Part shown: in pieces, positions 45,515 through 61,660 of the stretch | Numbering within the stretch: the first letter of the stretch is position 1 | Layout of the letters: each line of letters opens with the position of its first letter | DNA from: Brevibacillus laterosporus LMG 15441 | GTDB taxonomy: Bacteria; Bacillota; Bacilli; Brevibacillales; Brevibacillaceae | Length of the DNA stretch: 64,000 bases | Assembly (NCBI RefSeq): GCF_000219535.2 | Contig: NZ_CP007806.1 | Location: 3,942,501-4,006,500 of the forward strand | Direction of reading: 5' to 3' | Notes under the pieces: generated by a model | Told to the model about the DNA's origin: nothing | Database searches by the model: none | What the model saw: only the letters and a program-made list of their open reading frames with translations | Program-made: the position numbers and the translations under genes

Positions 45515-45549
45515 AAAAAAACCTCCCAGCTTACAAAAATGCTGGAAGG
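45515..45549 (-). terminator. Terminator at the end of the tail/lysis operon
   Basis: On the minus strand CCTTCCAGC pairs with GCTGGGAGG, with one mismatch, and is followed by TTTTTTT. It closes the whole leftward tail-particle cluster. Confidence 0.8.
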
Positions 45550-45603
45550 CTTAGGTTAACTCAATTCATGATGATAAAAAAATTATGATAGAGTGTATAA
45601 ATA

Positions 45604-45789
45604 CTATTGTTGCTTTGCTTGTCTATTATTTAAAAGCACAGCAAGGATAGTCACGACAGCCGAAACCCCGTTCGCAATGGCATTCACCTGATCGTCTGTA
45701 ATGATTTGGTAGCCTAGTGTATCGGCTAGCAGCTTTATAGAACCAATTATTCCAGCAACTAGTAGTGGTATATTTCCCTGTTCCTTCAC
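45604..45789 (-). CDS. Putative phage holin
   Basis: 61 residues from a GTG that overlaps the end of the amidase gene (TGAGTG), so translation is probably coupled. Two hydrophobic helices (PLLVAGIIGSIKLLADTLG and a VSAVVTILAVLLN helix) and a basic tail (NRQAKQQ). Size, topology and place right after the endolysin fit a holin that makes membrane holes to release the endolysin. No family assignment beyond this. Confidence 0.65.
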   Translation of the reverse strand: MKEQGNIPLLVAGIIGSIKLLADTLGYQIITDDQVNAIANGVSAVVTILAVLLNNRQAKQQ

Positions 45790-46515
45790 TCACGTACCTG
45801 CTTTCAGATACTTTGCCATATTTTTAATCAATTGAGCAGCATACTCACCTGCCACCGTTCTAGTAGAGACGGCATTCTGTTTCCAATAGTCAGGGGAGGA
45901 AATGATCTTTGCCTGAACAAGAGCATCCACAGCTAATTCAAAATCGTCGTTAGGCGCTTCTACAGCAGGAGAGTACGGATGGCCAATATGACCGCAAAAA
46001 GCCTTGATCACTGCTTCAGCATAGCGTTTCCAATTATTTTTTAGTTTTTGTGAATCTAAAGCATGATCAATAAATCCATATTCCATAATGATCGTGTCTA
46101 CTGCACCTGTTTCACGATGCATAAAATAATAGTCTCGCCCATCAGCACCTACTCGTGTGTAGACTCTACGGAATTTTTGTCCCTCGGCAACTACGGCTTG
46201 TACTAGAGCATTTGCTAGCCTATTGGTAGTAAAGATAGAATGAATCGCTTCCACACCTTCCCCGCCACCTGAGTTGATGTGGTTGGAAATACAGTAGGTG
46301 GCCTCGCTTTGTTTGACGAGCGTAGTGCGCTGAGATGGGGTAAGTGTGGTATCTGTCGTCCGAGTGATCGCAGCAGGAAGGTTTAACTCTCTGCACCTTT
46401 GTAGCTGGTACAAGCTAATTTGTAGCGTCAGATCCTTCTCCTGCATCTGATTCCCAATTGCTCCCGGATCAGCTCCCCCATGCCCTGCATCAATTATTAA
46501 AATCGGCTTTGCCAT
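45790..46515 (-). CDS. N-acetylmuramoyl-L-alanine amidase (endolysin)
   Basis: 241 residues behind AAAAGGAGG. Amidase_3 fold: IIDAGHGGADPGAIG (zinc His), EKDLTL with the zinc Glu, CISNHINS (zinc His) and IIMEYGFID (catalytic Glu). Residues about 180-241 form a short helical C-terminal part that may bind the wall. It cleaves the stem peptide from muramic acid. In this cluster it would release the tail particles by lysis. Confidence 0.9.
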   Translation of the reverse strand: MAKPILIIDAGHGGADPGAIGNQMQEKDLTLQISLYQLQRCRELNLPAAITRTTDTTLTPSQRTTLVKQSEATYCISNHINSGGGEGVEAIHSIFTTNRLANALVQAVVAEGQKFRRVYTRVGADGRDYYFMHRETGAVDTIIMEYGFIDHALDSQKLKNNWKRYAEAVIKAFCGHIGHPYSPAVEAPNDDFELAVDALVQAKIISSPDYWKQNAVSTRTVAGEYAAQLIKNMAKYLKAGT

Positions 46516-46530
46516 ATGCCTATCCTCCTT

Positions 46531-46797
46531 TTATTCTACCTTTTCTTTTAATTCTTGCAGTTCCATTTCCAACCCCGATAGACTTCGTTCAATCTGCTGT
46601 AGGGTTGACGTATTTCGCTCCAATTGAATCACCATGCGTTCATTGTGTTCCATCAGCTTTGCTTCCCGTGTTTGAGCTTGTTTAACCAAAAGAGCCTCGC
46701 GATCTCTCCCCTCTTTTTTGGTAGAGAATAACAGCCAGACAAATAGAGCAGCAAACGGACCTTGCTGAAGCAACGCGTTCATTACGCTCTCTTCCAT
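46531..46797 (-). CDS. bhlA: BhlA/UviB-type holin-like protein
   Basis: 88 residues from the ATG at 46797 with AAGGAGGG upstream. One N-terminal hydrophobic segment (ALLQQGPFAALFVWLLFST) is followed by a charged coiled coil (KKEGRDREALLVKQAQTREAKL and similar). This is the typical BhlA/UviB pattern found beside PBSX-like endolysins. Acts at the membrane in lysis. Directly upstream of the amidase gene. Confidence 0.8.
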   Translation of the reverse strand: MEESVMNALLQQGPFAALFVWLLFSTKKEGRDREALLVKQAQTREAKLMEHNERMVIQLERNTSTLQQIERSLSGLEMELQELKEKVE

Positions 46798-46827
46798 GCC
46801 ATTTTTCCCTCCTTGGCAGGTTTTTGT

Positions 46828-46861
46828 AAAAGAAAAGGCATCTTCATGATTGAAGATGCCC
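46828..46861 (-). terminator. Terminator before the lysis cassette
   Basis: GGCATCTTCA pairs perfectly with TGAAGATGCC around a 4-base loop. On the minus strand it is followed by TTTTCTTTT. It sits between the tail-fibre genes and bhlA, so part of the lysis-gene expression would need read-through or a local promoter. Confidence 0.8.
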
Positions 46862-46938
46862 GAAGAAGCCCGGAATGTGTGAGTTTTTTCTAAATGATGA
46901 AAACAAAAACGCCTCACTCAACATGAGCAGGCGTTCCT

Positions 46939-47067
46939 TTATTCCTCGTTTTGTTTCGCTAGATACTCGGCTACAGGAATTTGATAATCTTTTGGGAGCG
47001 AGTCGATGGTACGTCGTTTCGCTTTAACAAGCAAGCCATAAACGGGAATCATGTATTCTCTGACCAT
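46939..47067 (-). CDS. CD1375-like small phage protein, 42 residues
   Basis: ATG at 47067, preceded by AAGGGGGTGA. Product begins MVREYMIPVYGLLVKAKRR and continues with TIDSLPKDYQIPVAEYLA. Small proteins of this type, resembling the CD1375 family, sit after tail-fibre genes in Bacillota prophages. The start is 2 bases past the stop of the preceding small gene. Function unknown. Confidence 0.7.
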   Translation of the reverse strand: MVREYMIPVYGLLVKAKRRTIDSLPKDYQIPVAEYLAKQNEE

Positions 47068-47069
47068 TT

Positions 47070-47231
47070 CTATTCACCCCCTTTCCATTCTTCAAGCGCT
47101 TGCTCAAGAGCGGTCATTTTTTCATAAAGCTGTGCAATCGCTTCATAGGCTATTACCAGCTCTAAAGACATTTCCTTTTGCTCACGGTCAGCTTGGATCT
47201 TAGATAATGCTTTTGGTTTAGTCAGGATCAA
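47070..47231 (-). CDS. Small coiled-coil tail-cluster protein, 53 residues
   Basis: TTG start at 47231, overlapping the tail-fibre stop (TTGA), with GGAGGTG about seven bases upstream inside the tail-fibre gene. Product starts MILTKPKALSKIQADREQK, then MSLELVIAYEAIAQLYEKM, ending EWKGGE. A single amphipathic helix, like the small XkdW-type proteins after tail-fibre genes. Function unknown. Confidence 0.65.
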   Translation of the reverse strand: MILTKPKALSKIQADREQKEMSLELVIAYEAIAQLYEKMTALEQALEEWKGGE

Positions 47232-49720
47232 TCGAATGCACCTCCGAATCCTCTTACGATAACTGGCTCAGTTGCTGTTCCTTTGGTGAATGAAAAGCGT
47301 ACGCTAACGCCCCATTTTTTTGCTGTTTTTTCCTTGTTGGTGAAGATGAAGCCTCGGTTGAATTTGACATGGTTGCTCGCGTCTTCCCATGTCGGCAACT
47401 CGTCGAATGCGTTGTTACATACCTCGGCTTTGTAATCGGCACCGGCAGGAATCGTCGCATCGATTGTCACTAGGATGCGTTTGGCAGCTATGTCGGTACC
47501 AAATGGGTTCCTTAGAGCAAACGCTATCTTGTCGGCTGATCGCCGGAAGGTATACGATCGAGTCGAGGTCATCCCTTTGCTGTCGGTTGCTTCGATTGTA
47601 AGGGTGTGTACCGCTGTCAAGGAGAGGCGTAACCATGTGTCCAGTGGGATTGTTGCAGTGTTTTCTTTGCTGTCAGTTCCAGCGAACGTGCGGATCACCT
47701 TGCCGTTGATTTTTTCTGTGATGGTAAATGCGTCACCCTCTGGTTCTGTGACGGTGTACGTTTTTGACAGAATGGTGCTTAACACACCAAGGTCTACGTT
47801 TTGACCGTTAATAACGGGCGGGCGATTGTGAACGGCTCGGAACTTGAGGGTAATCTCGGTTGATTTGCCACCTTGGTCGTCCTCTGCCCAGATGGTTAGG
47901 GTATGATCGGTGTTTTCGGCTAGGTTAGAGCCTGTGAGATCGGTGGTGCCGTCATAGAGACGTTTGGCTCGGAATGTTAGCGTTTTGGCAAAAGAAATAG
48001 GCGTGCTACCGTTGGATACTCCGGATTGCAACGCCCTTGTGGTGCCGTTGTTGATGCGGTATTTTATGGTGACTACGTTGTCTTTGTCGGTGTCGGAGGC
48101 GGTGCCTTGGATGTTTAACGTAGCGTTTTCGGTTAGGGTTTGGTTGTCGGATGGTGATGTAAGAGTGAATTTTGGTGGTTCATTGAGGATCGTGATTACA
48201 ACGAGACCGTTCCCTTCACGTACACCTGCGGTCGTGGAACTGTTGGCTAAATTGCCGTGGTAGGATGAACCACCACCGCCTGCCCCAGTTTTACCGTAAA
48301 CACTTGCGTCATACGGTCCGGCTCCGGACCCACCGCCGTAATAGCCACCACCGCCACCACCACCCATATAGATTCCCGGAGTTGTCGCATCTCCACCAAT
48401 TCCGATCTGACCGTCTAATGCCCCTCCTGCTGTCTGAGTACCGCCTTTCGCATAACTAGGATCGGGTTTATTCCTCTCACCTTGACCGCCTTCTAAACCA
48501 CCCCCGTATCCCCCAACTAAAATACTTATATTTTCATCTTCTCTATTATAGAATGTTCCGCCACCACCACCGGCAACTATAACTCTGTGTTCTAGGTTTA
48601 CGCCGGACTTTCTCACATCTGTTGCACCGCCGCCACCACCAGAATTCCAATCTTCTCTACCTTTTCCTGATCCACCCCCGTTCCATCCCCCTGCTGGTTG
48701 TTTCCCCATTCCTCCAACATTAACTTGGAGGACTTCCCCTGATGAAACTCCTAAACTACCTTTAGCATATCCACCTTTTCCTCCCGGTGTTCGATATCCT
48801 AAACCACCTTGAGCTCCCCAACATTCAATCAGGATTTTATTCACATTAGGCGGAACCATAAACGCCTCAGGCTTACCCGTATACTCAAACGTGTAAGTAG
48901 TACGTCCTTGAGCATCCTTACCAATTTTCCCTTTCGTCAATTCGACGTTAAAATTCGTCTGATTACCTTTATCGTCGCGAACAGAAACCGTAAAAGGGAT
49001 TACTCCTGCCGTAATATCGGCGTTTTTAAACGTATAGCTGACGGGCTGGTTCTTACCTAATGCTGTCCAAGCCTGTTTGACGACGTTGTTTAGTTTGACT
49101 TGGTATTGCAACGTATCGTCTGGATCGGCGTCATTTGCTGTGATATTTACGGTGAAATCGTTAGTGCCGATGTTGATGTGTTGGTTCTCGGTTAAGGACT
49201 GATTGTTTGCTGTAAGGGTCATAGTTGGTGCAGAGTTAAAATCTCCTATTAATTTAAAATCATTAATATGCTGATATTTATCCACTGGTGGTGCTGATGT
49301 ATATGTGTCTGAAAACCTGTTCCTATGATTTTTTATAGTAAAGTCAAATCCGACAGTATTGGATTTTATGATTTTAGGGAGATTTTCATTGTCAAGCCAA
49401 AGACGAACTCCTAAGGAAGTCATACCAACAACATATTCTCTTCCCGCAATTAACTTTACAGGTGTAAACTCGAAGCTAACCCATGCGGGCGAGAGATTTT
49501 CAGATATCAACTTTGTTTTTTGGGCTATTAAATTACCAGTGTCGTCCCATAAGGTAATTGTTGCATTTTCAGAAGAGGAGAAGGGATTACTTATTTTTGC
49601 TTCTACTGTATGTAGAATAAAGTCCTTATTAACCGTAAATCCATTTGCATACTGCTTAATACCTCCAGTATCACTACGAACTGCTTCACCATCGCAAAAT
49701 ATCACCATACCTGTACTCAA
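47228..49720 (-). CDS. Glycine-rich tail-fibre protein (receptor-binding candidate)
   Basis: 830 residues from a TTG preceded by GGAAGGTG. Residues about 1-160 form a beta-sandwich-like N-terminal part. Ig/cadherin-like repeats follow (about 155-265, with TENQHINIGTNDFTVNITA and PDDTLQYQVKLNN). A glycine-rich domain spans about 295-510 with GYYGGGSGAGPYD, GGGGGATDVRKSG and other runs. More Ig-like repeats lead to the C-terminus. It sits where PBSX encodes XkdV and lyses its target through the baseplate, so it probably determines which cells the particle attaches to. Such glycine-rich domains are also seen in unrelated surface proteins. Confidence 0.75.
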   Translation of the reverse strand: MSTGMVIFCDGEAVRSDTGGIKQYANGFTVNKDFILHTVEAKISNPFSSSENATITLWDDTGNLIAQKTKLISENLSPAWVSFEFTPVKLIAGREYVVGMTSLGVRLWLDNENLPKIIKSNTVGFDFTIKNHRNRFSDTYTSAPPVDKYQHINDFKLIGDFNSAPTMTLTANNQSLTENQHINIGTNDFTVNITANDADPDDTLQYQVKLNNVVKQAWTALGKNQPVSYTFKNADITAGVIPFTVSVRDDKGNQTNFNVELTKGKIGKDAQGRTTYTFEYTGKPEAFMVPPNVNKILIECWGAQGGLGYRTPGGKGGYAKGSLGVSSGEVLQVNVGGMGKQPAGGWNGGGSGKGREDWNSGGGGGATDVRKSGVNLEHRVIVAGGGGGTFYNREDENISILVGGYGGGLEGGQGERNKPDPSYAKGGTQTAGGALDGQIGIGGDATTPGIYMGGGGGGGYYGGGSGAGPYDASVYGKTGAGGGGSSYHGNLANSSTTAGVREGNGLVVITILNEPPKFTLTSPSDNQTLTENATLNIQGTASDTDKDNVVTIKYRINNGTTRALQSGVSNGSTPISFAKTLTFRAKRLYDGTTDLTGSNLAENTDHTLTIWAEDDQGGKSTEITLKFRAVHNRPPVINGQNVDLGVLSTILSKTYTVTEPEGDAFTITEKINGKVIRTFAGTDSKENTATIPLDTWLRLSLTAVHTLTIEATDSKGMTSTRSYTFRRSADKIAFALRNPFGTDIAAKRILVTIDATIPAGADYKAEVCNNAFDELPTWEDASNHVKFNRGFIFTNKEKTAKKWGVSVRFSFTKGTATEPVIVRGFGGAFD

Positions 49721-49785
49721 ACGATTACACCTTCCTTCTGACGATGTCCGTTACTCAGGTTTATAAGCATTCTTTTAATTACCAT

Positions 49786-50061
49786 CTACAAAACCACCAG
49801 CCTTTTATTAGCCTCGTCATACCAACCCTCTGTAAGCATGATGTCGTCTAGTGTTGCAAAATTCTCAAAAAACACATTGTCCGTAAAATTATTAAACACC
49901 GCATCTTTTATCGTCTTCACATCAATCTGCAAAGCCGAAATAGCCACTGTGTGGTGTTCCAGTAGCTTGTGCGAATCGTCTATTCCTTTTTCCCACCTAT
50001 TGATATCCGTTTCCGTGACAGGATCGTCATAGTTCCAATCTAGTTTAGGATTATAGGGCAT
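49786..50061 (-). CDS. Tail-fibre-associated protein, 91 residues
   Basis: Product starts MPYNPKLDWNYDDPVTETDIN, then RWEKGIDDSH. This WKYDDPVTE-like motif is common at the N-terminus of fibre or baseplate-linked proteins in Bacillota phages. It overlaps the next gene by one base at 50061. Probably a fibre adaptor split from the main fibre gene. Function inferred from place and motif only. Confidence 0.6.
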   Translation of the reverse strand: MPYNPKLDWNYDDPVTETDINRWEKGIDDSHKLLEHHTVAISALQIDVKTIKDAVFNNFTDNVFFENFATLDDIMLTEGWYDEANKRLVVL

Positions 50062-50342
50062 CAGTCGTTGGCTCCTCTCACTTCAAATTCAAATCGAAAT
50101 TCTAAGGTTTGATCACTTAAGACATCTACATTAGTCGTTCTTTCCGTAATAAGATTGCCTGCCTCATCTAGTAGTTTTAAGGAAGATACCTTCGTGATTC
50201 CGCTAACAGGCTCCGTTATGACTACAAGCTTTCTTCCATTTCTTTTGGCAGACCTCAATTGCACCGTTTGATTGTTGACGATCAGACTTGCGGCACGAGT
50301 TGCTAAGTCCTCCGCAACTCGTGCTAAATAAGCTTTATCCAT
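50061..50342 (-). CDS. Phage structural hypothetical, 93 residues
   Basis: Starts MDKAYLARVAEDLATRAASL, ends with a beta-rich FRFEFEVRGAND. It overlaps the flanking genes by one base on each side, showing a tightly packed tail operon. Resembles small baseplate-region proteins between XkdU and fibre genes. No motif gives a function. Confidence 0.55.
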   Translation of the reverse strand: MDKAYLARVAEDLATRAASLIVNNQTVQLRSAKRNGRKLVVITEPVSGITKVSSLKLLDEAGNLITERTTNVDVLSDQTLEFRFEFEVRGAND

Positions 50343-50929
50343 TAAATCACCACCTTATCTTGATCTTTAAGAGGAGTCATACCAGCTCGAAACTCATGTA
50401 CACTGTGGTAACGTTTCTGATTGATTGTAATTCTTTCATGAAACACAATCTCGTCCGACACTGCCAACTGCGGCATAAACACATGTGGGACTCGCTTTCG
50501 CTTATGAATATCATGGACCCACGAGGCTACGTCATAAATTGACCATAGGGGAACCGAGATATAGAAATAGCCTGTATCTGGGTTTTCCTCTATGAGAACG
50601 TGATCAGTTGCCTGTTCTTTGATAAAAAGTCTGGTAATACTCTCTGCCAACGCTGGCGTAAAGGGCAAACGCTCCCGATACTTTGCCATGACACGTGCAC
50701 GTCGCGTCTCATAGGAATCACCTTGCTTGGGAGTAACCTGAAACATATCCTCCCAATACGGCAGTCCCCATGTAGCTGTTGTGATTATCATTTGCCGCTC
50801 TAAGTCTAGCTTGCGAGCCTGTTGGTACTCTCTCTCAGCTTCTCCTGCCTCAAAATGATGCACCGCCGCCTGATTCTCATACCAATAGGGTGGCAGCATC
50901 GTCCGATATTTTTCTGGAATCATCATCAT
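50342..50929 (-). CDS. xkdU: XkdU/YmfQ-like baseplate protein (DUF2313)
   Basis: 195 residues. LPPYWYENQAAVHHFEAGEAE, GLPYWEDMFQVTP and RRARVMAKYRERLPFTPALAE match the DUF2313/Mu gp48 family. The start overlaps the gene for the baseplate wedge J-like protein by 4 bases. In Mu-like phages the product closes the baseplate and holds the fibre. Position after xkdT fits. Confidence 0.8.
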   Translation of the reverse strand: MMMIPEKYRTMLPPYWYENQAAVHHFEAGEAEREYQQARKLDLERQMIITTATWGLPYWEDMFQVTPKQGDSYETRRARVMAKYRERLPFTPALAESITRLFIKEQATDHVLIEENPDTGYFYISVPLWSIYDVASWVHDIHKRKRVPHVFMPQLAVSDEIVFHERITINQKRYHSVHEFRAGMTPLKDQDKVVI

Positions 50930-51753
50930 GGCGTACTCACCTTCACATTTTTCACAATCGGTATGGTTGAAAAGGTGAGATCAATATTTTCCTGTGCATT
51001 ATTTAGCAAAACATTCCGATAATCTATTACACCAGCTACCTTAAACAAGCGATAGATTTCAGAATAAAGGATCTTCTTGCCCTGCTTATTAATATATTCC
51101 ACAATGTCAGCTTGTATTTGCTGTTTTATTTCGTCTACAGATGCAGAGAACTCCCACTCCAGCAAATCTCCGCTGACTGTTACTTCCAATGCTTTCGCTG
51201 CCTGAACCACTAGCTTGTCGTTTAAACTATGCTTATTCGGCTGTGCTAGATGCTTTGTTACAGCTTCTACTAAAGCTTCATCGGCTGGTTGCCCTTTTTG
51301 GTCGGTTAATGCAATATGCACTGTGTTTGGTGCCTCCCCCCAGATAAACAACTCTCCTACATTGGGCACTTCTTTTACCCAGCGCCTGTAATCGTACTCA
51401 GCCCCTGAACCTTCCTCTTCCCCCGCCTTAGCAATCAAGCGTTGGCGATACAGGTCATCTGGCTCATCCGTTTTTCTCTTCACACCTAAAAACACTCCCC
51501 AGGCGTCCAAAAATTCCCCGTCTGCCCAGGGTAGATACCATTGCAAAAAGCGATATTCATCCAATTGTTGTTGCTCGGATATTTCTAGTGCGAGTGGGTA
51601 GTGAAAATCGTAAAAAATTTCGCCTTCTTCTGGGGAAGGGGGCGTCTCACCACGGGCCTGAGCAAGTTCACTCGCTCGATTATACATCCGTTGGTAAATC
51701 TCTTCGGCTGTTTCGCGTAACAGCGGCATGTCTGGTTTTTTTATCTCTGCCAT
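50926..51753 (-). CDS. xkdT: Baseplate J/gp47-like wedge protein (XkdT)
   Basis: 275 residues. Contains YRFLQWYLPWADGEFLDAWG, VKRKTDEPDDLYRQRLIAK and GSGAEYDYRRWVKEVPNVGE, typical of baseplate-J/gp47 proteins of contractile-tail phages. The start overlaps the xkdS-like stop by 13 bases. It forms wedges of the baseplate around the central spike. Confidence 0.9.
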   Translation of the reverse strand: MAEIKKPDMPLLRETAEEIYQRMYNRASELAQARGETPPSPEEGEIFYDFHYPLALEISEQQQLDEYRFLQWYLPWADGEFLDAWGVFLGVKRKTDEPDDLYRQRLIAKAGEEEGSGAEYDYRRWVKEVPNVGELFIWGEAPNTVHIALTDQKGQPADEALVEAVTKHLAQPNKHSLNDKLVVQAAKALEVTVSGDLLEWEFSASVDEIKQQIQADIVEYINKQGKKILYSEIYRLFKVAGVIDYRNVLLNNAQENIDLTFSTIPIVKNVKVSTP

Positions 51754-52424: not shown

Positions 52425-52425
52425 C

Positions 52426-54000: not shown

Positions 54001-56501
54001 GCTTTTCCACCTCTAGTCTCTAATGCATTGACGAAAGCAGTCTCGATGATACGTTTAATTTCATTGGTAACAGTAGGGTCCTTCAATAATCGAATCATCC
54101 CTACAACATCCTGAAGCACACCATCTGCATGTAACGTGATAGGCATGGAAGAGACCGTTACCGATAGATTTTGAGCTGTATCCTTCTTATTTGCGGCATT
54201 AGTAGCTGCCGGCGTTACTTGTGGTGCTGGTGTCGTCGTTAACGTATCTTGTGGCTTACTGCTCGCAGGCTTGATTTGACTAGGGCTAGCATCACTACTA
54301 GCTGGAGTCGGTGCGGGTGCTGGAGGTACTGGTGCGGGTGGTGTCTCTGGCTTTTCTTTGCCCCATCCGAACCAATCAGGCAATTTTTCCATGAGGAAGT
54401 CTCCACCAACCGAACCTAAAAATCCACCCACTACTCCGCCAACCGCTGTGCCTAATCCTGGCACAATCGAGCCAACTGTAGCACCAATCATAGTACCTGC
54501 CGCTTTCATCCCGGCACTTCCACCAAGCTTTAATAGCTCCATCGGTTTGTTGTCAGAGGTAACCAATGAGGCGAGGCCCATTGCTTCTCCTACAAAAGGA
54601 ATTTTTTTCAACAGACCTTTTCCAAAGGATTTAACCCCACCAAAACCTTTGCCGCCCAGATTCTTTAATCCGTCCCACGCGGCACCACCAAAGCTTTTTA
54701 TCCTTTCAAAAGCTTTACCACCAATGTCCTTTAATTTGCCGAATCCGGTAGTGGGCTTGCCAGCTTTTTTGGGGACTGTAGTAGGAGGTTTAGATTTAGG
54801 AGTAACTGGCTTGGCTGGCTTGGGTTTAGCTTTTGGTTTCGTAGTTTTTTTCTTATTACTTGGGCTACTTGGATTATTTTTGGTTGATTTGCTGGGTCCT
54901 CCCGTGTTTTTTCCACCGAAAGTAAAGGGCCCTAGCTTTCTTTTCCCCTTTTTGCCTCCTCTTTTTTTCTTCGAGCCCTTACGCTTCTTACGTTCTTCCC
55001 CACCTGCATCTGGACTGTCATCTGGATCTTCTTCTTCCTCTGACTTTCCCTTCGCCATTTTAGCAAGAGTATAGATACCTATCGCCTCTATGGTATATCT
55101 AGCCAACTCTGGTAATTCATTAAAAGTTTTGATACAGAAAGTCAATATACCAGCTAACGTTTTTATGACCGGTGTTAAATCCTTGGCTACTGTAGCTGTT
55201 AAGTCCACCATGGCTGCCTTGGCTTCACTTTGGGCTTGCATATATTCAAACCAAGGATTTTGGTTAATTGCAGCCTTATAGGATTTATTTGCTTCGTTAT
55301 TAGCCACTTTATTTTCCACTTCGCCAGCAGAAATTTTACCCGTTTTCTCCATCAGCGGCACTAGATGCTGTAATAGCTCCTTACCAGAGCCTGAGCCTAC
55401 TGCATTTAGCATCTCTTGACGTACATTATCATCTTTAATAGAAGCAAGATTCATAAAAATACGTCCCATCGCCTGCTGATTATCGCTTTTATTATCTGAA
55501 TGCAAGAGCTGGGTTACTTGAATGGCCTCTATGTCAGCTAGCCGTTTGGCTTCCTCAGGACTTTTCCCGTCCGCCTCATAGCCTTTTTGTAATACTTTAC
55601 TCAGCTCACCCTGAGAAGACATTTTTAAGGCAATATCTTTTAACGCGCCTAGCGGCATGTCATTTGATGGAATACCCATGTTGCCAATTTCGCCGACCAT
55701 CATCGCCATTTTCTCTGGTGTATCCATTACCATCCCTAGCTGGGAGGTATATTTGATCATAGAGGGTACAAAATCATCGCTAAAATCCTTCATATTGTTA
55801 CTCATATATTGAAGAGAATTTGCCAGTCGCTCAGGATCAGTAACTCCTGTGCTGTCGCGTAATAGAGCCATCATTTTTAAGCTCTGGTCAGCAGAAAACC
55901 CTGTAGTCATACTTAATTTGGTAGCATATTCGGCAAATGCAGCCTTATCCTTTGAATTTACATCGTCACTTTTGTTATAGATGTTTATAGCTTCTGTCTT
56001 GCTTAGTTCCGGGTTGATTTGGATGATTTTTCCAACGCTACGATCTAAATCTTGGACCTCGGCATCCGTTTTTCCTTTGGCAATAAATAATCCGCGTTCT
56101 TTTGCCGCAGCTTGGGATTCAGGGATTGAGTTTTTGTACCAGCTCACCCCCTGCCCTGCGAGGTCAACAAAGGGGTTAGCAGAGCCGCCGTCATCTCCTC
56201 CGCCACTCACCACCACGGGTTGACTAAATTGACTGCGCATTTGCGAAATTTTTTGTGTCGCCTGATCGTCTATTTCTACACGGAGCTTGGCTTGTACGGA
56301 GGTTCCCAGTTGCTGTAATTGAGAACGTACCTCTTTAATGCGCCGCTCCATCCTATCAGCTTCTTGTAAAAATCCGCGTCCCAGTTGTCCCAGAGCTACT
56401 TGCAACGAAGCCGAGTCTCTTTTCCATTCCAGCATGCCCTGCCTTACCTTAAACATCTCTTTCTGGACAGAAAGTAGCTCAACAACCATCTCGTTGCCCA
56501 T
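53997..56501 (-). CDS. xkdO: Tail tape-measure protein (XkdO-like)
   Basis: 834 residues from the ATG at 56501, with GGAGG eight bases upstream; the GTG at 56510 overlaps that site. A helical N-terminal half has coiled-coil stretches and a TIGR01760-like middle (FAEYATKLSMTTGFSADQSL). A Lys/Gly/Pro-rich linker spans about 485-600. A membrane-active stretch follows with GLASLVTSDN and GTMIGATVGSIVPGLGTAVG. The protein sets tail length; at about 1.5 angstrom per residue the tail would be near 120 nm at most (rule known from phages, applied here as inference). Confidence 0.85.
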   Translation of the reverse strand: MGNEMVVELLSVQKEMFKVRQGMLEWKRDSASLQVALGQLGRGFLQEADRMERRIKEVRSQLQQLGTSVQAKLRVEIDDQATQKISQMRSQFSQPVVVSGGGDDGGSANPFVDLAGQGVSWYKNSIPESQAAAKERGLFIAKGKTDAEVQDLDRSVGKIIQINPELSKTEAINIYNKSDDVNSKDKAAFAEYATKLSMTTGFSADQSLKMMALLRDSTGVTDPERLANSLQYMSNNMKDFSDDFVPSMIKYTSQLGMVMDTPEKMAMMVGEIGNMGIPSNDMPLGALKDIALKMSSQGELSKVLQKGYEADGKSPEEAKRLADIEAIQVTQLLHSDNKSDNQQAMGRIFMNLASIKDDNVRQEMLNAVGSGSGKELLQHLVPLMEKTGKISAGEVENKVANNEANKSYKAAINQNPWFEYMQAQSEAKAAMVDLTATVAKDLTPVIKTLAGILTFCIKTFNELPELARYTIEAIGIYTLAKMAKGKSEEEEDPDDSPDAGGEERKKRKGSKKKRGGKKGKRKLGPFTFGGKNTGGPSKSTKNNPSSPSNKKKTTKPKAKPKPAKPVTPKSKPPTTVPKKAGKPTTGFGKLKDIGGKAFERIKSFGGAAWDGLKNLGGKGFGGVKSFGKGLLKKIPFVGEAMGLASLVTSDNKPMELLKLGGSAGMKAAGTMIGATVGSIVPGLGTAVGGVVGGFLGSVGGDFLMEKLPDWFGWGKEKPETPPAPVPPAPAPTPASSDASPSQIKPASSKPQDTLTTTPAPQVTPAATNAANKKDTAQNLSVTVSSMPITLHADGVLQDVVGMIRLLKDPTVTNEIKRIIETAFVNALETRGGKA

Positions 56502-56540
56502 TGCATTCACCTCCGTTCATGCTATATCTTTTCTTCATCA

Positions 56541-56574
56541 AAAAAACGGCGGAGGATATCATTTCTCCTCCGCC
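56541..56574 (-). terminator. Terminator-like hairpin between chaperone and tape-measure genes
   Basis: On the minus strand GGCGGAGGA pairs perfectly with TCCTCCGCC around a roughly 9-base loop, followed by G and seven T. It lies right after the end of the frameshifted frame and 40 bases before the tape-measure start. Confidence 0.75.
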
Positions 56575-57094
56575 TCTAATTCAATGATCTGACATGCGAT
56601 AATAAATAATTTTTGCTTATAACGATCTACTTCGTACTCTACGATTTCCGCCGGGAGACCTCTGCCATGCAGATAAGCCTTCGCTACATGCCAAGCCTCC
56701 GCGTCGGATTGAATTAGTTTTTTGCTTCTTCAATCGCTTCTTCTTCTGTCTGACCCTGATTTGCTTTGCGCACGGTTTCTATAAGGAGCGCATATGCGTC
56801 TGGGTTGCGATCAAATAATTTGCCAGGAAGCTCGAATTTGTCCCCTGCTTTGTAGGCTTTCTTTAGCTCTGGATCGTTCCAATTAAAATCATGTTCAGTC
56901 GCCTTCACAATGCGAGCGTCATTGTAGCGATACCAGTCGAATTTATCACCTTTATCAGCTTCACGCTCACAAATCCGACTTTCCATTAAGGTTAGCTGAC
57001 GTACCTTCCATACTTCGCCATCAATGCTGACTTCTACCTCATGACGTGGTGTTGTTTCATTTGCTTGCGCTAAGAATTTTTCTAATTTACCCAT
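56559..57094 (-). CDS. Frameshifted tail chaperone fusion (gpG-T type)
   Basis: Predicted product of a -1 ribosomal shift at the slippery heptamer 56717-56723. The zero frame reads GCA AAA AAC TAA; after shifting back one base the ribosome reads on as CTA ATT CAA and adds 52 residues, starting LIQSDAEAWHVAKAYLHGRG and ending with IIELEAEEK and TGA at 56559-56561. The extension is protein-like, follows the frame of the shift exactly and has no start of its own. The known lambda G/GT and other phage tail chaperones use the same arrangement to make two forms at a fixed ratio. Confidence 0.75.
56714..57094 (-). CDS. xkdN: Tail assembly chaperone (XkdN-like)
   Basis: 126 residues. MGKLEKFLAQANETTPRHEVE and KVRQLTLMESRICEREADKGD match the XkdN family. 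The protein ends EEAIEEAKN just after the slippery sequence. It chaperones the tape-measure protein during tube assembly. It follows the tube gene by 11 bases, with AGGAGGT upstream of the ATG. Confidence 0.85.
   Translation of the reverse strand: MGKLEKFLAQANETTPRHEVEVSIDGEVWKVRQLTLMESRICEREADKGDKFDWYRYNDARIVKATEHDFNWNDPELKKAYKAGDKFELPGKLFDRNPDAYALLIETVRKANQGQTEEEAIEEAKN
56717..56723 (-). other. A AAA AAC slippery heptamer (-1 frameshift site)
   Basis: On the minus strand the bases read AAAAAAC in the zero frame A AAA AAC, directly followed by the TAA stop of xkdN. It matches the X-XXY-YYZ rule for -1 frameshifting exactly. No strong stem lies right after it, so stimulation by a downstream structure was not seen. 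Confidence 0.75.
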
Positions 57095-57105: not shown

Positions 57106-57558
57106 CTATTCTTCTGTATATTCTGGTAATTTATCAAGATAATCTGGCTTCTTGTTACTGCGGCCTTTAATTTCATAAGTTGCGTTATCGGTTCCATCTG
57201 CCTTTGCTTCCCATAATGTGATTTCTTCTGGGTTTAAATAAATATCCGTTAAACGAACGCGTTCTGTATTGCCGTTTTCCTTATCGACCATTTCGCCCAA
57301 AAGCTGTGGAATGACAGGAGTTTTACCCTCTGTAATTTGGTCCACGCAAAAATATTTGAGCAGAGCGTTAACAGATGATACCTTTAAAGTAACCTCTACA
57401 TGCCAAGAGTCAATCGTTTGCACCGAGCCCTTTTGCAGACGCTTTACATCGCCATACTCTGTTTTTAAGACGGCCTTTCCTTCCAATGTACCGTAGATTG
57501 GATCACCATTTTCATCATATACCTGACAATTTTTTAATTTAATATCGCTTTGACGCAT
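57106..57558 (-). CDS. xkdM: Tail tube protein (XkdM-like)
   Basis: 150 residues from the ATG at 57558, which follows GGGAGGTG; an in-frame ATG six codons earlier is inside that site. Product starts MRQSDIKLKNCQVYDENGD and has KTEYGDVKRLQKGSVQTID and EEITLWEAKADGTDNATYE, fitting the XkdM/YqbM tube family. It forms the rigid inner tube driven into the target. The start is 2 bases after the sheath stop. Confidence 0.85.
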   Translation of the reverse strand: MRQSDIKLKNCQVYDENGDPIYGTLEGKAVLKTEYGDVKRLQKGSVQTIDSWHVEVTLKVSSVNALLKYFCVDQITEGKTPVIPQLLGEMVDKENGNTERVRLTDIYLNPEEITLWEAKADGTDNATYEIKGRSNKKPDYLDKLPEYTEE

Positions 57559-57560
57559 GC

Positions 57561-58898
57561 TTACAGCACCTCCCATTCAATATCGAAAAGCTCAATAGCA
57601 TCTAGTGGCTTGGCGGCTAAGCGGAATCCGCGTTTGTCACCAATTCCATTTTTCTTATCTTCAAAAATCCAACCTTTATCAATAGCTCCTTGCGCTTCAC
57701 GCACTTCGAGATAGGTCTTAACCGCTCCAACGAACGTCGCACCGCCAATATCGTTATTGTCCAATTTGCCTTTATATTTTTTGCCAACAGAGGTAATGTC
57801 ATTAACAATTTGGTCAAGGGTCATAGAGACGCGAATTTTGCCAAAATCCTCACGCTCTGCTGCTTTTAATGTCGTTAAGGTGTTGACCGCACTTTCAATC
57901 AGGTACACATCACCATCACGAACGGCAATCAATGAACCAGAGTTAAGCGCGTTTTGAATTTCAGTGTGTCCCCAATCCTTTGCCGCCTTTTTCATCGGCA
58001 CTAGCTGTGCACTCAGAGAAATGTGAGCTGGCGTAGCAGCGATCATACCTGCTAGCCATGCCGCCCATTCCAGGCTTCCATAGGTCTTGCCGTTTACATG
58101 CTGACCTGCAATGGCGCAGTTTACGACACGTCGAGAGTTGTTGGCGGCAGAACGATCCACATGCTCGTTCATGTTGCTATCTTTTTCTGGCAAACCTCCG
58201 ATTACTAGCGTGCTACGTTTTTTGCTAAAAAGCTCGCGATCGACCATGAATTGTTTAGCTGCTGCCTGGATTCCCGCATCAGCCGACGGTAAATACATCG
58301 CGTCGAAATCAACACCAGAGATGGAGTTAAATAGAGTAGTAAAGTCCGTAGCCGATAAAGTAGCAATGCCGCTTGTTCCCCCCGAGAGTGCCGTCATTGC
58401 TGTTTCTTCTACTGCTTTGTCACCCAGCTTTTTCACCTTGATATAGATGGATTGTTCTGCTTTGGTTACTAGCTCGTCCATATTTGCAAACGAGAACTTC
58501 TCTGTTTTTATTGGACCTTTGACCTGTAATTCCTTTTTACCTAATTCTGCTGTGGAATCCTTGATCGAAATTTGCAGCTCATTACCAACTAAGCCTGGAT
58601 AACGTGCTTGAATAGCAATCGAACCTTCTTGTGAATAGCTGGCCGCAACACTCTTACCGTTCGTCATACGATAGCCAACTACCGTAGCGCCACCTTCTGC
58701 GGCCAACTCCAAAATATCGATTTGCCCAAAGGTTTCTGCTACGCGCTCTTCATAACCCTTCATTGTAATGACCTGATCAGGGGCTCCCCATTCAGCTAGA
58801 TATGGTACTAGTACCACACCACTTTTCGGTAGGACTCGCTCCTGTGCTTTCGCCTTTAATTCTACGTTTACACCTGGTCGTTCACGTTGGATTGTCAT
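57561..58898 (-). CDS. xkdK: Tail sheath protein (XkdK-like)
   Basis: 445 residues. ATG at 58898 follows GAGGAGGT; upstream in-frame starts overlap the previous gene. MTIQRERPGVNVELKAKAQ, the SVAASYSQEGSIAIQARYPG stretch and the C-terminal GWIFEDKKNGIGDKRGFRLA fit the contractile sheath family. Presence of a sheath gene shows the tail contracts. Contraction pushes the tube through the target envelope. Confidence 0.9.
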   Translation of the reverse strand: MTIQRERPGVNVELKAKAQERVLPKSGVVLVPYLAEWGAPDQVITMKGYEERVAETFGQIDILELAAEGGATVVGYRMTNGKSVAASYSQEGSIAIQARYPGLVGNELQISIKDSTAELGKKELQVKGPIKTEKFSFANMDELVTKAEQSIYIKVKKLGDKAVEETAMTALSGGTSGIATLSATDFTTLFNSISGVDFDAMYLPSADAGIQAAAKQFMVDRELFSKKRSTLVIGGLPEKDSNMNEHVDRSAANNSRRVVNCAIAGQHVNGKTYGSLEWAAWLAGMIAATPAHISLSAQLVPMKKAAKDWGHTEIQNALNSGSLIAVRDGDVYLIESAVNTLTTLKAAEREDFGKIRVSMTLDQIVNDITSVGKKYKGKLDNNDIGGATFVGAVKTYLEVREAQGAIDKGWIFEDKKNGIGDKRGFRLAAKPLDAIELFDIEWEVL

Positions 58899-58899
58899 A

Positions 58900-59163
58900 C
58901 TATTTACCTCCTCGAAATGTAGATACGTATTGTCGTACTTGTTCTTCATTAATTACCTGCTGATCTGTAAATGCATGTAACGCTCCTGCTACCTCAAACC
59001 GCTCAGCTTGGAACAGAGGTGCACTCTCAATCCATTCCAGACGAGTGCGCTTGTTCTCCTGAGCAGTAGTGTTGAGGGGTTGTGACTCTGCTCGCTCGTT
59101 GTTCTTTTTTAGCAGTGTTTTTTTCACTGCACCTTCATTGGTTTGGCCTATTGATTTAGCCAT
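58900..59163 (-). CDS. YqzN/YkzM-like small protein
   Basis: 87 residues; the ATG at 59163 lies six bases after AAGGAGG. N-terminal half is Lys/Asn/Gln-rich and disordered; the C-terminal half (ESAPLFQAERFEVAGALHAF, then NEEQVRQYVSTFRGGK) fits the YqzN/YkzM domain found between xkdJ and the sheath gene in PBSX-like phages. It overlaps the end of the previous gene. Role in assembly not established. Confidence 0.65.
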   Translation of the reverse strand: MAKSIGQTNEGAVKKTLLKKNNERAESQPLNTTAQENKRTRLEWIESAPLFQAERFEVAGALHAFTDQQVINEEQVRQYVSTFRGGK

Positions 59164-59605
59164 GTCCATCCTCCTTCACATCAAAGATAGCAATTTTCTC
59201 AACCTGCTCTCTTCGTACAGGCATGAGGTACTCATAGCGAAATATTATTTCGGCCCGTTCCTTTTTTTCGGTATTCACAGAAAAAGTATTCGGGTCGATA
59301 TCAAGCAAGAGCTTATTTTTGCCTCGGTAACTATAACGTTGCTTTCGTAACAAATCTCGCAAGACACCTGTCGAAAGCGGAACTTGCTTTTCTTGCTCCA
59401 AGGGATAGTGCAGCATAATAGTTGCTTCACAAATCACTTTGTAGCTGGTCAGGCTATTTCCCTTTTCACTGATCGTTTGGGTCATGACAAAAGCGGATGG
59501 TAATGGAAACGTCCCCTTCATCCACTCTCCTAATTGGGAAATGATCGATATTTGAGGATATGCCTCCTCAACCAAATCAATTAGCGTGGACAAATCCCTG
59601 TCCAT
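59156..59605 (-). CDS. xkdJ: XkdJ-like tail terminator protein
   Basis: 149 residues from the ATG at 59605, 11 bases after GGAGG. Starts MDRDLSTLIDLVEEAYPQIS, then GVLRDLLRKQRYSYRGKNKL and a beta-rich middle, fitting the phage tail-terminator-like group at this site in PBSX (XkdJ). In a headless particle it would cap the upper end of the tube. Its last bases overlap the YqzN-like gene. Confidence 0.7.
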   Translation of the reverse strand: MDRDLSTLIDLVEEAYPQISIISQLGEWMKGTFPLPSAFVMTQTISEKGNSLTSYKVICEATIMLHYPLEQEKQVPLSTGVLRDLLRKQRYSYRGKNKLLLDIDPNTFSVNTEKKERAEIIFRYEYLMPVRREQVEKIAIFDVKEDGHG

Positions 59606-59636
59606 CTCTATTTGCACCTCCTTTCAAGGCTTTTGC

Positions 59637-59816
59637 TCATTGCTTTGTGGCTAGGGGAGGTGATCTTCCCTCATAGGTTGTTGCTTGCTTCCTAGTCTGG
59701 TTGACCTTTTGTTCTGCCGATCGTTTTACAGATGCTAGCTGCTTGTGTATAAATGGCTTTCTTTCATGAGCCAGTTGTTCTCTGACAGCTCCTAGTAATC
59801 TTGGATGCAGGATCAT
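59637..59816 (-). CDS. Small hypothetical protein at the head-module gap
   Basis: 59 residues from the ATG at 59816; AGGAGG lies 11 bases upstream and rules out the in-frame TTG at 59840. Sequence MILHPRLLGAVREQLAHERK is basic and helical, ending in RSPPLATKQ. It occupies the position where PBSX has portal, capsid and connector genes before xkdJ. It may be a remnant of a gp10-like connector or an unrelated small protein. No family recognised. Confidence 0.45.
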   Translation of the reverse strand: MILHPRLLGAVREQLAHERKPFIHKQLASVKRSAEQKVNQTRKQATTYEGRSPPLATKQ

Positions 59817-59871
59817 TCTGGTGCGTACCTCCTTGCTCAACCGTTACTGCCTCGCCAAATGGTCCTTACAC

Positions 59872-60486
59872 TTATAGGTGGCTTCTGCCCCACACAAACA
59901 AACGTTCGTAAAAGTGGATTTTGACGCATCCGATGAGTAAAAAGAAAACAGCCATCACAAGGATAGCTGTTACATTCTTGGCAAACTCAATTTTTTGTTG
60001 GGCACGAGACAGCAAGGTGGATACGTTTCCTCGGGATATAAAGAGCATTTCAGCAGCCTTCTCATGAGTAAAGCCGCTCCCATGCACCATCAGATAGCAC
60101 TCTCTTTCTTTTTCTGTAACAAACTGAAGATAAAAATCTATTAGCTGCCGTTCTGCATCACTCAAACCGACACGGCATCCTCCTGTTCCCGGACTCACAT
60201 AGCTTTGCATTTTAAAAGGGTCTAATAAAATCTCTCGCTGTTCCTTTGATCGTCTCTGAATACCTCGTTGATTATCAGGTTGTCTGCCTGTTTCCAGCCA
60301 TTTAATCGCATACTCCACATCGCGAATGCTTTCGGCCAGACTACTGCGCAATGCTTTTTGATCTGTACCATGTACACCGCCAGCACTAGCTTCTTGGTCG
60401 GAATTCTCTATTTCAGCTAACATGTTCTTCAGTTGTTTTTTGGTTGCTTTGTAGGAAGTAATTAGTTTTTTTATACTTTTTGCCAT
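59872..60486 (-). CDS. xpf: Xpf-like late transcription regulator
   Basis: 204 residues from the ATG at 60486, which follows AGGGGG; the upstream in-frame ATG has no site. A sigma-70 region-4-like helix-turn-helix spans about 135-175 (KERECYLMVHGSGFTHEKAAEML, ISRGNVSTLLSRAQQKI), preceded by a helical N-terminal part. The C-terminus has a hydrophobic stretch (VTAILVMAVFFLLIGCV) that is unusual for this group and might anchor it at the membrane. In PBSX Xpf activates late tail genes; the position just before them agrees. Confidence 0.75.
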   Translation of the reverse strand: MAKSIKKLITSYKATKKQLKNMLAEIENSDQEASAGGVHGTDQKALRSSLAESIRDVEYAIKWLETGRQPDNQRGIQRRSKEQREILLDPFKMQSYVSPGTGGCRVGLSDAERQLIDFYLQFVTEKERECYLMVHGSGFTHEKAAEMLFISRGNVSTLLSRAQQKIEFAKNVTAILVMAVFFLLIGCVKIHFYERLFVWGRSHL

Positions 60487-60601
60487 GCTTTTATCCCCCT
60501 TGATTTTACATACTTTTTTACATGTGCATCTTTCCATTCCGGTACAAAATCGTCGCTTTCTCCTATATGCTCATTGCCTTATCTGCCTGATTGATGTAAG
60601 C

Positions 60602-60763
60602 TCACCGTCTGCTTGCCGCTCTATCCTTCAGAAATTGAATGCTTGTGGTATCACCCATCAAGCGTCTCCATTCATACTCTGAGATTGCTCTAGGTTTTTT
60701 CTGTCTTACTGAAGCTTTCCTCGTTTGATGTGGGCTTCTTTGTTTTTGATTGGGCTTGCTCAT
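60602..60763 (-). CDS. Small basic protein, 53 residues
   Basis: ATG at 60763 with GGAGGG six bases upstream. Product starts MSKPNQKQRSPHQTRKASVR and ends with a DRAASRR tail; strongly basic, with SEYEWRRLMGDTTSIQFLKDR in the middle. It lies between xtrA-like and xpf-like genes and reads in the same direction. No known family. Confidence 0.65.
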   Translation of the reverse strand: MSKPNQKQRSPHQTRKASVRQKKPRAISEYEWRRLMGDTTSIQFLKDRAASRR

Positions 60764-60822
60764 GTTCTCCCTCCTTTTTCATTGATTTGCTGTCGATACA
60801 GATTTGATTATTTTTCCAAATG

Positions 60823-60870
60823 AAAAAAGGACGCTAGAAACTCCCACTCATCGTGGAAATATCCAGCGCC
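60823..60870 (-). terminator. Terminator after the XtrA-like gene
   Basis: On the minus strand GGCGCTGGA pairs with TCTAGCGTCC with mismatches, followed by TTTTTT. It lies between the XtrA-like gene and the small basic gene. The long loop makes it a partial attenuator at best. Confidence 0.55.
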
Positions 60871-60905
60871 CTCCCGCATCTCGGTATCAGGCTAATATGT
60901 AGTTG

Positions 60906-61106
60906 TTAAAATAATTCATTTTCTAGAAATGCTATTTTTGCTATCTTTCCTTGGCTAGATTTGACTACAGTCTCACCGTGGTGAACCAGAGGCACTATTT
61001 TAATCTTCCCTTGAACAGGGTCGATGAGAACCATGCTAGCTTCCCTACCGACCGGAATTGTCACCTGATTCATGTCCAGTGTTAGTTTCATCTCTGTAGA
61101 CCGCAT
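60906..61106 (-). CDS. xtrA: XtrA-like phage protein
   Basis: 66 residues. ATG at 61106 sits nine bases after GAGGAGG, better than the nearby ATG at 61112. SMVLIDPVQGKIKIVPLVHHG followed by ETVVKSSQGKIAKIAFLENE fits the PBSX XtrA pattern (HGET..QGK). First gene of the leftward operon, just after its promoter. Function unknown in PBSX as well. Confidence 0.6.
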   Translation of the reverse strand: MRSTEMKLTLDMNQVTIPVGREASMVLIDPVQGKIKIVPLVHHGETVVKSSQGKIAKIAFLENELF

Positions 61107-61167
61107 TCTCATCTTCCTCCTCTGAAACCTTCTGAAGCAATTTGATTGAATACGCAAAACTTGAGCA

Positions 61168-61252
61168 TTAATCAACTTATAACTTTATATTAGTTGATTA
61201 AACCTCAAAAGTCAACCGAAACTTGCTAATACCTCAACTAAATAGATATAAT
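61168..61252. promoter_or_regulatory. Divergent promoter/operator region of the tail cluster
   Basis: Leftward: TTGACT (61210-61215) with 17 bases to TAATAT (61187-61192). Rightward: TTGCTA (61223-61228) with 18 bases to TATAAT (61247-61252). A perfect 9-base inverted repeat TTAATCAAC/GTTGATTAA (61168-61176 and 61193-61201) overlaps the leftward promoter spacer and the area just past its -10. It is a good candidate operator for the Xre-like repressor encoded next to it. ACCTC and GAGGT half-sites flank the rightward -10. Confidence 0.65.
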
Positions 61253-61303
61253 AGAGGTAAACAAGCTAGGTATGGATCATAAGGTAGACAAGGCGGTGAT
61301 AGA

Positions 61304-61660
61304 ATGACACTTGGAGAACGATTAAAGGAAAAACGCAAAGAATATAAATGGACCCAAAAAGAGATTGCAGACAAACTAGGCGTCGACAACACCACTGTCT
61401 CAAAATGGGAATCAAATACCTATGAGCCGGATGCTACTTCGCTTAAGGAATTAGCTGAAATATATCAAACCTCTACCGACTATTTGCTCAACAAACAGAC
61501 AAAAGAAGAACCTCACTTCTCCTCAGATGAAACAGAAGATGCTACCGGACTTGCCTTTATCACAGGTGGAGACTCTTTAACAGCAGAAGAGGCTGAATAC
61601 CTAAAGGAAAGCTTGGAGCTTTTTCGAAGAATGAAGGAAAAGCGGGCAAAGTCCAAATGA
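61304..61660 (+). CDS. xre: Xre-like repressor of the tail cluster
   Basis: 118 residues. Helix-turn-helix at about 5-60: LKEKRKEYKWTQKEIADKLG, DNTTVSKWESNTYEPD. An acidic linker and a helical C-terminus (TAEEAEYLKESLELFRRMKE) follow, matching the PBSX Xre type. GGCGGTGATAGA precedes the ATG. Read divergently from the tail operon across a shared control region, as expected for a repressor that keeps the cluster silent until damage or stress. No LexA box was seen. Confidence 0.8.
   Translation: MTLGERLKEKRKEYKWTQKEIADKLGVDNTTVSKWESNTYEPDATSLKELAEIYQTSTDYLLNKQTKEEPHFSSDETEDATGLAFITGGDSLTAEEAEYLKESLELFRRMKEKRAKSK

What the first reader, a model, noticed from the sequence alone, without database searches (positions are those of the whole stretch)
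45515..61660. Complete headless contractile-tail cluster: probable R-type tailocin
A PBSX-ordered set (Xre, XtrA-like, Xpf-like, XkdJ, sheath, tube, chaperones, tape measure, XkdP-U, fibre, BhlA, amidase, holin) runs without terminase, portal, capsid or integrase genes. The open frames of the structural genes are intact, so it looks domesticated and kept as a killing particle, not a decayed prophage. Gene order is seen; the particle and its killing range are inferred.
Basis: partly seen in the sequence, partly recalled or inferred. Interest (0 to 1): 0.75.

Follow-up and report, generated by a model that had tools for sequence, protein, structure and literature searches.

The report
Headless tailocin locus of Brevibacillus laterosporus
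The window holds a complete gene set for a headless, spring-loaded phage tail that a soil bacterium probably makes to kill its relatives; such particles are already reported from the same species, and several related strains carry a second, possibly interchangeable baseplate-and-fibre set.

Summary
A tail operon (45604-61175) with a divergent Xre gene (61304-61660) encodes sheath, tube, chaperone, tape measure, hub, baseplate, fibre, BhlA and amidase. No hit to the terminase, portal and capsid families searched lies within 490 kb. Best reading: a domesticated R-type tailocin, ordinary in kind; contractile structures and the matching xkdK gene are reported from B. laterosporus 1821L (PMC9406221). 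Additions: (1) related loci keep a head module between the sigma-like and XkdJ-position genes; the window and six sister loci do not. (2) Core genes show dN/dS about 0.01-0.2, and a -1 frameshift site ends xkdN. (3) The fibre is a mosaic: residues 1-510 vary, 513-830 are constant. (4) In 6 of 10 laterosporus-group loci a second XkdT-XkdU-fibre cassette (type B or C) precedes the window's type A, with a terminator-like hairpin between; wedge genes of both are under purifying selection. The window has A only. Killing, range and induction were not tested; LexA-like sites are at chance level; seven small genes, including 'XkdJ' and the 61-aa 'holin', have no family hit.

The parts
61304..61660 (+). 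Xre-type repressor, divergent
   Evidence: PF01381 2.4e-17; phrog_8 4.8e-22
61161..61259 (.). two inverted repeats between XtrA and Xre, candidate operator
   Evidence: 21-nt arms 86% complementary; 14-nt arms 79%; function inferred
60906..61175 (-). XtrA-like (possible start 61106)
   Evidence: PF17356 1.9e-22 (start)
60602..60763 (-). small ORF x53b, conserved in G003 and G004
   Evidence: no family hit; orthologues
59872..60486 (-). Xpf-like sigma factor (ORF opens at 60537; start at 60486 inferred)
   Evidence: phrog_1190 5.7e-39; start
59637..59840 (-). small ORF x67, fast-changing
   Evidence: no family hit; dN/dS 0.22-0.37
59156..59605 (-). gene in the XkdJ position
   Evidence: no family hit; orthologue directly follows the head connectors in B. 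borstelensis
58900..59169 (-). small tail gene x89
   Evidence: no family hit; conserved in position
57561..58898 (-). tail sheath, XkdK-like
   Evidence: phrog_279 1.3e-64; PDB diffocin sheath CD1363 1.3e-11; start
57106..57576 (-). tail tube, XkdM-like
   Evidence: phrog_365 2.7e-6; PF09393 1.1e-4, below cut-off; no PDB hit
56714..57094 (-). tail assembly chaperone XkdN
   Evidence: phrog_389 2.4e-14; PF08890 4e-6
56559..56723 (-). -1 frameshift site AAAAAAC (56717-56723) and 52-residue extension of XkdN
   Evidence: heptamer directly before the stop in 23 of 31 loci; QKLF motif of the extension in 31 of 31
53997..56510 (-). tape measure, 837 aa
   Evidence: phrog_1047 4.2e-17, phrog_23574 tape measure 6e-7
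53386..54000 (-). XkdP-like, 204 aa, no LysM hit
   Evidence: phrog_380 2.6e-8; no Pfam hit
52426..53373 (-). hub XkdQ
   Evidence: PF24032 1.7e-19; phrog_400 7.8e-31
52170..52424 (-). XkdR position, candidate spike
   Evidence: no family or PDB hit; 11 chosen orthologues align with 21 invariant columns
51741..52169 (-). sheath initiator XkdS
   Evidence: PF10934 3.1e-16
50926..51753 (-). cassette A: XkdT baseplate triplex/J protein
   Evidence: PF04865 4.8e-21; PDB diffocin TRI-2 (CD1371) 1.3e-9
50342..50929 (-). cassette A: XkdU
   Evidence: PF10076 6e-17
50061..50342 (-). cassette A: x93
   Evidence: phrog_6293 6.2e-14
49786..50061 (-). cassette A: x91, fibre-front-like
   Evidence: phrog_15651 tail fiber 2e-7 (the best hit, phrog_17196, is labelled kinase)
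47228..49720 (-). cassette A: fibre, 830 aa, mosaic front, constant back
   Evidence: PF12810 and Ig-like domains; identity profile
47070..47231 (-). cassette A: x53
   Evidence: no family hit; conserved at the cassette end
46836..46861 (-). terminator-like hairpin between tail and lysis genes
   Evidence: 11 pairs then T-rich tail (21 such sites in the region, 15.6 expected)
46531..46797 (-). BhlA/UviB-type holin
   Evidence: PF10960 8.8e-7; start
45790..46515 (-). N-acetylmuramoyl-L-alanine amidase
   Evidence: PF01520 2.9e-26
45604..45789 (-). 61-aa putative small holin
   Evidence: no family hit; orthologues in the same place

Best explanation
A chromosomal R-type tailocin locus of the Brevibacillus laterosporus group, related to PBSX-like myophages but without head and packaging genes. 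Shown by sequence: a tail operon with repressor, lysis genes and a frameshift site, all frames open, core genes under purifying selection, no linked head hit, and exchangeable fibre parts. Inferred: relief of Xre repression starts tail synthesis; a DNA-free contractile tail is assembled; BhlA, amidase and perhaps the 61-aa protein lyse the producer; the fibre binds a relative's surface; sheath contraction drives the tube through the envelope and kills by loss of membrane potential. Target range is probably set by the variable front part of the fibre and by which XkdT-XkdU-fibre cassette is present.
For: Family hits in PBSX order. No terminase, portal or capsid hit within 490 kb for the families searched. 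Headed relatives have the head module between the sigma-like gene and the XkdJ-position gene, where the window has only x67. dN/dS of G000 against G003, V044 and V045: sheath 0.055-0.069, tube 0.014-0.035, XkdN 0.016-0.024. Frameshift site and extension. Same chromosomal neighbours in G003 and G004. Sheath and XkdT match C. difficile R-type diffocin chains in the PDB. Published for B. laterosporus 1821L: mitomycin-induced sheath structures, a ~48 kD XkdK protein, no phage activity on dilution.
Against: One-mismatch LexA-type sites are at chance level (22 found, 20.4 expected) and none is perfect, so SOS control is not seen. Seven of 24 ORFs have no family hit. PMC9406221 names xtmB genes and an integrase near 1821L xkdK and capsid-like objects in crude lysate; I found no phrog_2 terminase near the locus in G000, G003 and G004 or in 7 of 7 records V039-V045, but V039-V041 begin at x67 and so do not show the upstream side, and 1821L was not examined by name. 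Killing by purified protein there is weak (34.2% fewer viable cells at 18 h), and supplementary table legends speak of one experiment.
Confidence: 0.86

Rival explanations
1. A decaying prophage remnant that merely has not yet lost its tail genes.
For: Clearly phage-derived; related loci are headed and prophage-like; other broken phage genes exist in this genome; G004 gives raised dN/dS for sigma, XkdJ position and x67 (0.37-0.49).
Against: All tail frames open; core dN/dS far below 1; frameshift site kept; sigma-x67-XkdJ contiguous without head genes in 7 of 10 laterosporus-group loci (the other 3 records begin at x67); a second group without linked head hits.
Confidence: 0.06
2. A defective killer phage of the PBSX type, or a satellite, that uses heads encoded elsewhere in the genome.
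For: Tail genes are PBSX-like; a phrog_9 terminase hit at 0.76 Mb and a phrog_2 hit at 3.49 Mb exist.
Against: The only portal hit has a stop; no phrog_10 capsid (other capsid families were not searched genome-wide); none of the head and connector proteins of B. borstelensis has a relative in the 111-kb own stretch.
Confidence: 0.05
3. An extracellular injection system that delivers an effector to eukaryotic (for example insect) cells.
For: Contractile tail in a species that includes insect pathogens.
Against: No AAA ATPase or toxin-like Pfam hit among the 24 cluster ORFs; lysis genes and PBSX order fit bacteriocins.
Confidence: 0.03

Closest known systems
B. laterosporus 1821L / 1951 phage tail-like bacteriocin (PMC9406221; PMC11245835 passages)
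   Same: Same species group, same sheath gene length (1338 bp), BhlA-amidase, XkdT/XkdU, yvc-type ABC neighbours; contractile structures seen by microscopy there
   Different: That work reads a 4458-bp difference near xkdT in 1821L as a predicted phage region; in the sister strains seen here such an insertion is a second baseplate-fibre cassette. I did not have 1821L by name.
PBSX of Bacillus subtilis
   Same: Gene order Xre, XtrA, Xpf, XkdK-U, lysis
   Different: PBSX makes heads that package DNA (recalled; capsid XkdG is named); no head genes here
C. difficile R-type diffocin
   Same: Contractile killer of a Gram-positive; sheath and XkdT similar to CD1363 and CD1371
   Different: Sheath 445 aa against 354 aa; fibre not compared
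P. chlororaphis multi-fibre tailocins and the Erwinia invertible tailocin (review PMC12090994, passages)
   Same: More than one receptor-binding set for one tail
   Different: Here XkdT-XkdU-fibre sets are stacked in tandem; no long repeats in the two loci searched

Membership tests
R-type tailocin | contractile sheath, tube, baseplate and fibre genes complete | tested here: met
   the XkdR-position spike has no family hit
R-type tailocin | no linked capsid, portal or terminase genes | tested here: met
   families searched; 33 of 47 flank ORFs not scanned
R-type tailocin | no integrase or replication genes in the locus | tested here: met
   none among the 24 cluster ORFs
R-type tailocin | lysis genes and a regulator present | tested here: met
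   BhlA, amidase, Xre
R-type tailocin | headless particles seen | not testable with these tools
   published for strains 1821L and 1951
R-type tailocin | kills related bacteria | not testable with these tools
   weak killing published for 1821L protein
PBSX-like defective prophage | PBSX gene order | tested here: met
PBSX-like defective prophage | head and packaging module present | tested here: not met
PBSX-like defective prophage | SOS (LexA-type) site near the regulator | tested here: inconclusive
   no perfect site in the window, one-mismatch sites at chance level; PBSX control goes through Xre (recalled)
extracellular contractile injection system (Afp/PVC type) | AAA ATPase and cargo genes | tested here: not met
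   no such Pfam hit among 24 cluster ORFs

The most novel reading that the evidence does not exclude
The locus is one allele of a cassette-exchange tailocin. A constant sheath-tube-hub core accepts interchangeable, complete baseplate-wedge-and-fibre cassettes (A, B, C). In sister strains two functional cassettes are stacked with a terminator-like hairpin between them, so one cell could make two kinds of tailocin from one core, whereas the window strain keeps only cassette A.
Probability: 0.45. Interest if true: 0.6.

Novelty: new member of a known kind. Interest (0 to 1): 0.4.

Why it matters
It puts a little-studied Gram-positive tailocin in context: one tail lineage seen with two different head modules or with none. 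The stacked cassettes are a natural experiment on how contractile tails change target: diffocin workers surmised that a new receptor-binding protein needs its cognate baseplate attachment protein (PMC4453579, passages), and here XkdT, XkdU and fibre differ together between strains. B. laterosporus strains are developed as biopesticides, and the published particle is thought to affect their growth in culture (PMC9406221, abstract).

Tried and rejected
SOS box search: chance level. Phase switching between cassettes: no direct or inverted repeat of 24 nt or more in L113, and only one 51-nt 75% repeat inside XkdU in L111 (two of the six two-cassette loci searched), so a reversible switch is not supported. 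The promoter and terminator scan of two linkers did not list the linker hairpin, probably because its stem has a bulge; my own folding of the six linkers shows a hairpin followed by Ts in 6 of 6, in V042 with a different and weaker sequence. PDB searches with tube and with XkdR gave no hit. The XkdR structure job was asked for 15 times and never finished; no fold evidence is used. Unusable dN/dS rows: XkdJ position against G003 and V045 (register lost, at least in G003 because the query's extra front residues run over a stop), XkdT and XkdU against G004 (type A against type B), GNAT against V045 (looks misaligned); B against C rows (dS saturated). Raised values in first-slot small genes rest on few changes: B_x99 0.56, B_x74 0.63 (G003-V045), fibre 0.45 (V040-V042). 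Direction of head change (loss or gain) is not shown: the tree is midpoint-rooted, and V046 and V049, with near-equal sheaths, have different head types. V048 was labelled headed in the tree by likeness only; phrog_2 found nothing in it. PHROG 9 terminase and PHROG 10 capsid were searched only in the own genome.

Literature: paper searches were. One search (tailocin + PBSX + Brevibacillus) gave 1 paper. No listed title or abstract start describes the two-cassette reading; I read no supplements. Seen of PMC9406221: abstract, passages, section 22, and part 1 of 2 of section 23. Of PMC11245835, PMC12090994, PMC4453579, PMC10598620: passages only. All others: listings only.
Full report
What is there. 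The cluster reads leftward from the regulator: XtrA, a sigma-like Xpf gene, small genes, sheath, tube, XkdN, tape measure, XkdP, XkdQ, XkdR position, XkdS, XkdT, XkdU, two small fibre-linked genes, an 830-aa fibre, BhlA, amidase and a 61-aa protein, with Xre divergent. Pfam or PHROG hits at E<=0.001 were found for 17 of the 24 cluster ORFs; seven have none (61-aa 'holin', x53, x53b, XkdR position, x89, XkdJ position, x67). The sheath is 98% identical to that of B. laterosporus MSSRFCCT15 and the genome is 5.15 Mb in 3 contigs, so the window is from the B. laterosporus group.

Headless. In the own genome PF04466 has no match while its control rings in B. subtilis. phrog_2 has one match at 3.488 Mb, phrog_9 two at 0.76 and 3.41 Mb, portal families one piece with a stop at 0.763 Mb, phrog_10 none. 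The tail cluster lies at 3.988-4.004 Mb, so the nearest packaging hit is about 0.5 Mb away. I scanned 14 of 47 flank ORFs of 150 aa or more in Pfam; none is a phage structural gene.

Relatives with heads. A sheath relative at E<=1e-60 is in 27 of 39 genomes of the window's family (unnamed by the tool, Brevibacillaceae by inference), at 31 places. At 8 of 31 places a portal (phrog_12) or phrog_2 terminase lies within 20 kb upstream on the same contig (G008 three, G014 two, G025, G026, G037). At 23 of 31 none does; 4 of these 23 I hold undecided (G034, which has two head-tail connector relatives and few tail genes; G016 and the second G023 place, contig limits; G033, distant). In the window only x67 lies there. 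In 7 of 10 laterosporus-group loci (G000, G003, G004, V042-V045) sigma, x67 and the XkdJ-position gene are contiguous; V039-V041 begin at x67. Two IMG/VR records (V046, V051) carry another head type, with phrog_9 terminase, portal, protease and phrog_10 capsid. In a 43-row sheath tree the 10 laterosporus rows form a 100/100 clade, joined by G001 with weaker support (93/39), near headed rows; a second group of 15 rows without linked head hits (one, G016, undecided) has 100/98 support. Of 7 of these 15 for which I had flanks, 6 share upstream genes with one another. The headed label needs 3 changes on the tree (shuffled mean 7.2). Loss is the simpler story, but the direction is not shown.

Functional by sequence. 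Against G003, V044 and V045 dN/dS is 0.014-0.072 for sheath, tube, XkdN, XkdP and XkdR; 0.067-0.104 for XkdQ, XkdS and XkdT; 0.10-0.20 for tape measure, XkdU and the fibre's back part; 0.17-0.36 for sigma, x67 and x89; 0.03-0.24 for BhlA. Chromosomal neighbours FtsX, UDG and acyltransferase have 0.107-0.149 against G003, GNAT 0.285. Against the closer G004 some genes are higher (sigma 0.49, XkdJ position 0.49, x67 0.37, tape measure 0.27). At the xkdN end the heptamer A AAA AAC stands in frame directly before the stop, and the -1 frame is open for 52 residues. The heptamer is at that place in 23 of 31 loci, 3 nt further up in one, at -52 in one, and not found within 60 nt in six; the QKLF motif of the extension is in 31 of 31. 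This looks like the chaperone frameshift known from long-tailed phages (recalled).

Fibre. Residues 513-830 of the window's fibre are 82-95% identical in 6 of 6 compared A-slot fibres; residues 1-510 are mostly unalike in four of six (V042, G003, V039, V044) and alike in patches in V040 and V045. V039, whose sheath is 100% identical, has a 553-aa fibre with another front part. Specificity is therefore likely in the front part; this is an inference.

Second cassette. Of 10 laterosporus-group loci, 6 (G003, V040-V043, V045) have two XkdT-XkdU-fibre cassettes, 3 (window, V039, V044) have A only, and G004 has type B first and then its contig ends. In V041 and V043 the record ends inside the second fibre. 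V043 and G003 have identical sheaths and may be one strain. First-slot cassettes are type B (G003, V043, V045, G004) or C (V040-V042); the last slot, where seen, is A. In the 19 other mapped loci with an XkdT hit I saw one XkdT each. XkdT A against B or C is 43-70% identical in the first 90 residues and 20-47% in the rest, apart from the last few, as expected if the front binds the common core. The XkdS-XkdT junction in the window resembles V044 and the outgroup V051, so a single A cassette is probably ancestral and the B/C cassette an insertion; the window strain may also have lost it, since its nearest rows V040 and V041 have it. The linker before A holds a strong hairpin followed by Ts in five loci and a weaker variant in V042; two tool scans did not list it. 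Slot-2 A genes have dN/dS of 0.03-0.24 and first-slot XkdT/XkdU 0.13-0.40, so both seem used; some first-slot small genes and fibres are higher (0.45-0.63, few changes). No switch repeats were found in the two loci searched.

Regulation. No perfect LexA-type site is in the window and one-mismatch sites are at chance. Two inverted repeats lie between XtrA and Xre. A terminator-like hairpin separates tail and lysis genes.

Against the literature. PMC9406221 reports, for B. laterosporus 1821L, mitomycin-induced polysheath, a ~48 kD XkdK, lysate activity against several strains, weak killing by purified protein, and a 4458-bp difference near xkdT between 1821L and 1951, read there as a phage region. 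I think this may be the extra cassette; I could not check 1821L by name. That paper also names xtmB near xkdK, which I did not find in the loci I could see. Diffocin workers surmised that a new receptor-binding protein needs its cognate baseplate attachment protein, which fits cassettes moving as wholes.

Verdict. Ordinary in kind, well supported, already reported in the species; the cassette arrangement and the headed relatives are what this study adds.

Noticed in passing
G000 C1:760637-763753 (outside the window): Terminase hit (phrog_9, with stops inside) followed by a portal fragment with an in-frame stop: probably another, decayed prophage in the same genome.
   Followed up: partly
L118 (V046) and L119 (V049): Near-equal sheath proteins sit below two different head modules (phrog_9 terminase with phrog_10 capsid; PBSX-type relatives with phrog_2 terminase): head modules appear to be swapped over one tail.
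   Followed up: partly
window 61830-64000 and L008:6330-9031: A two-component system with an FtsX-type ABC transporter stands directly beside the cluster, as reported for 1821L.
   Followed up: partly
L008:9950-10849 (about 5.8 kb beyond Xre, right of the window): An IS-type integrase (rve) gene.
   Followed up: no
IMG/VR genome 2841277917 (L100 and L103): One genome number holds both a laterosporus-type locus (V045) and a 45-kb record whose sheath is 73% identical to the window's.
   Followed up: no
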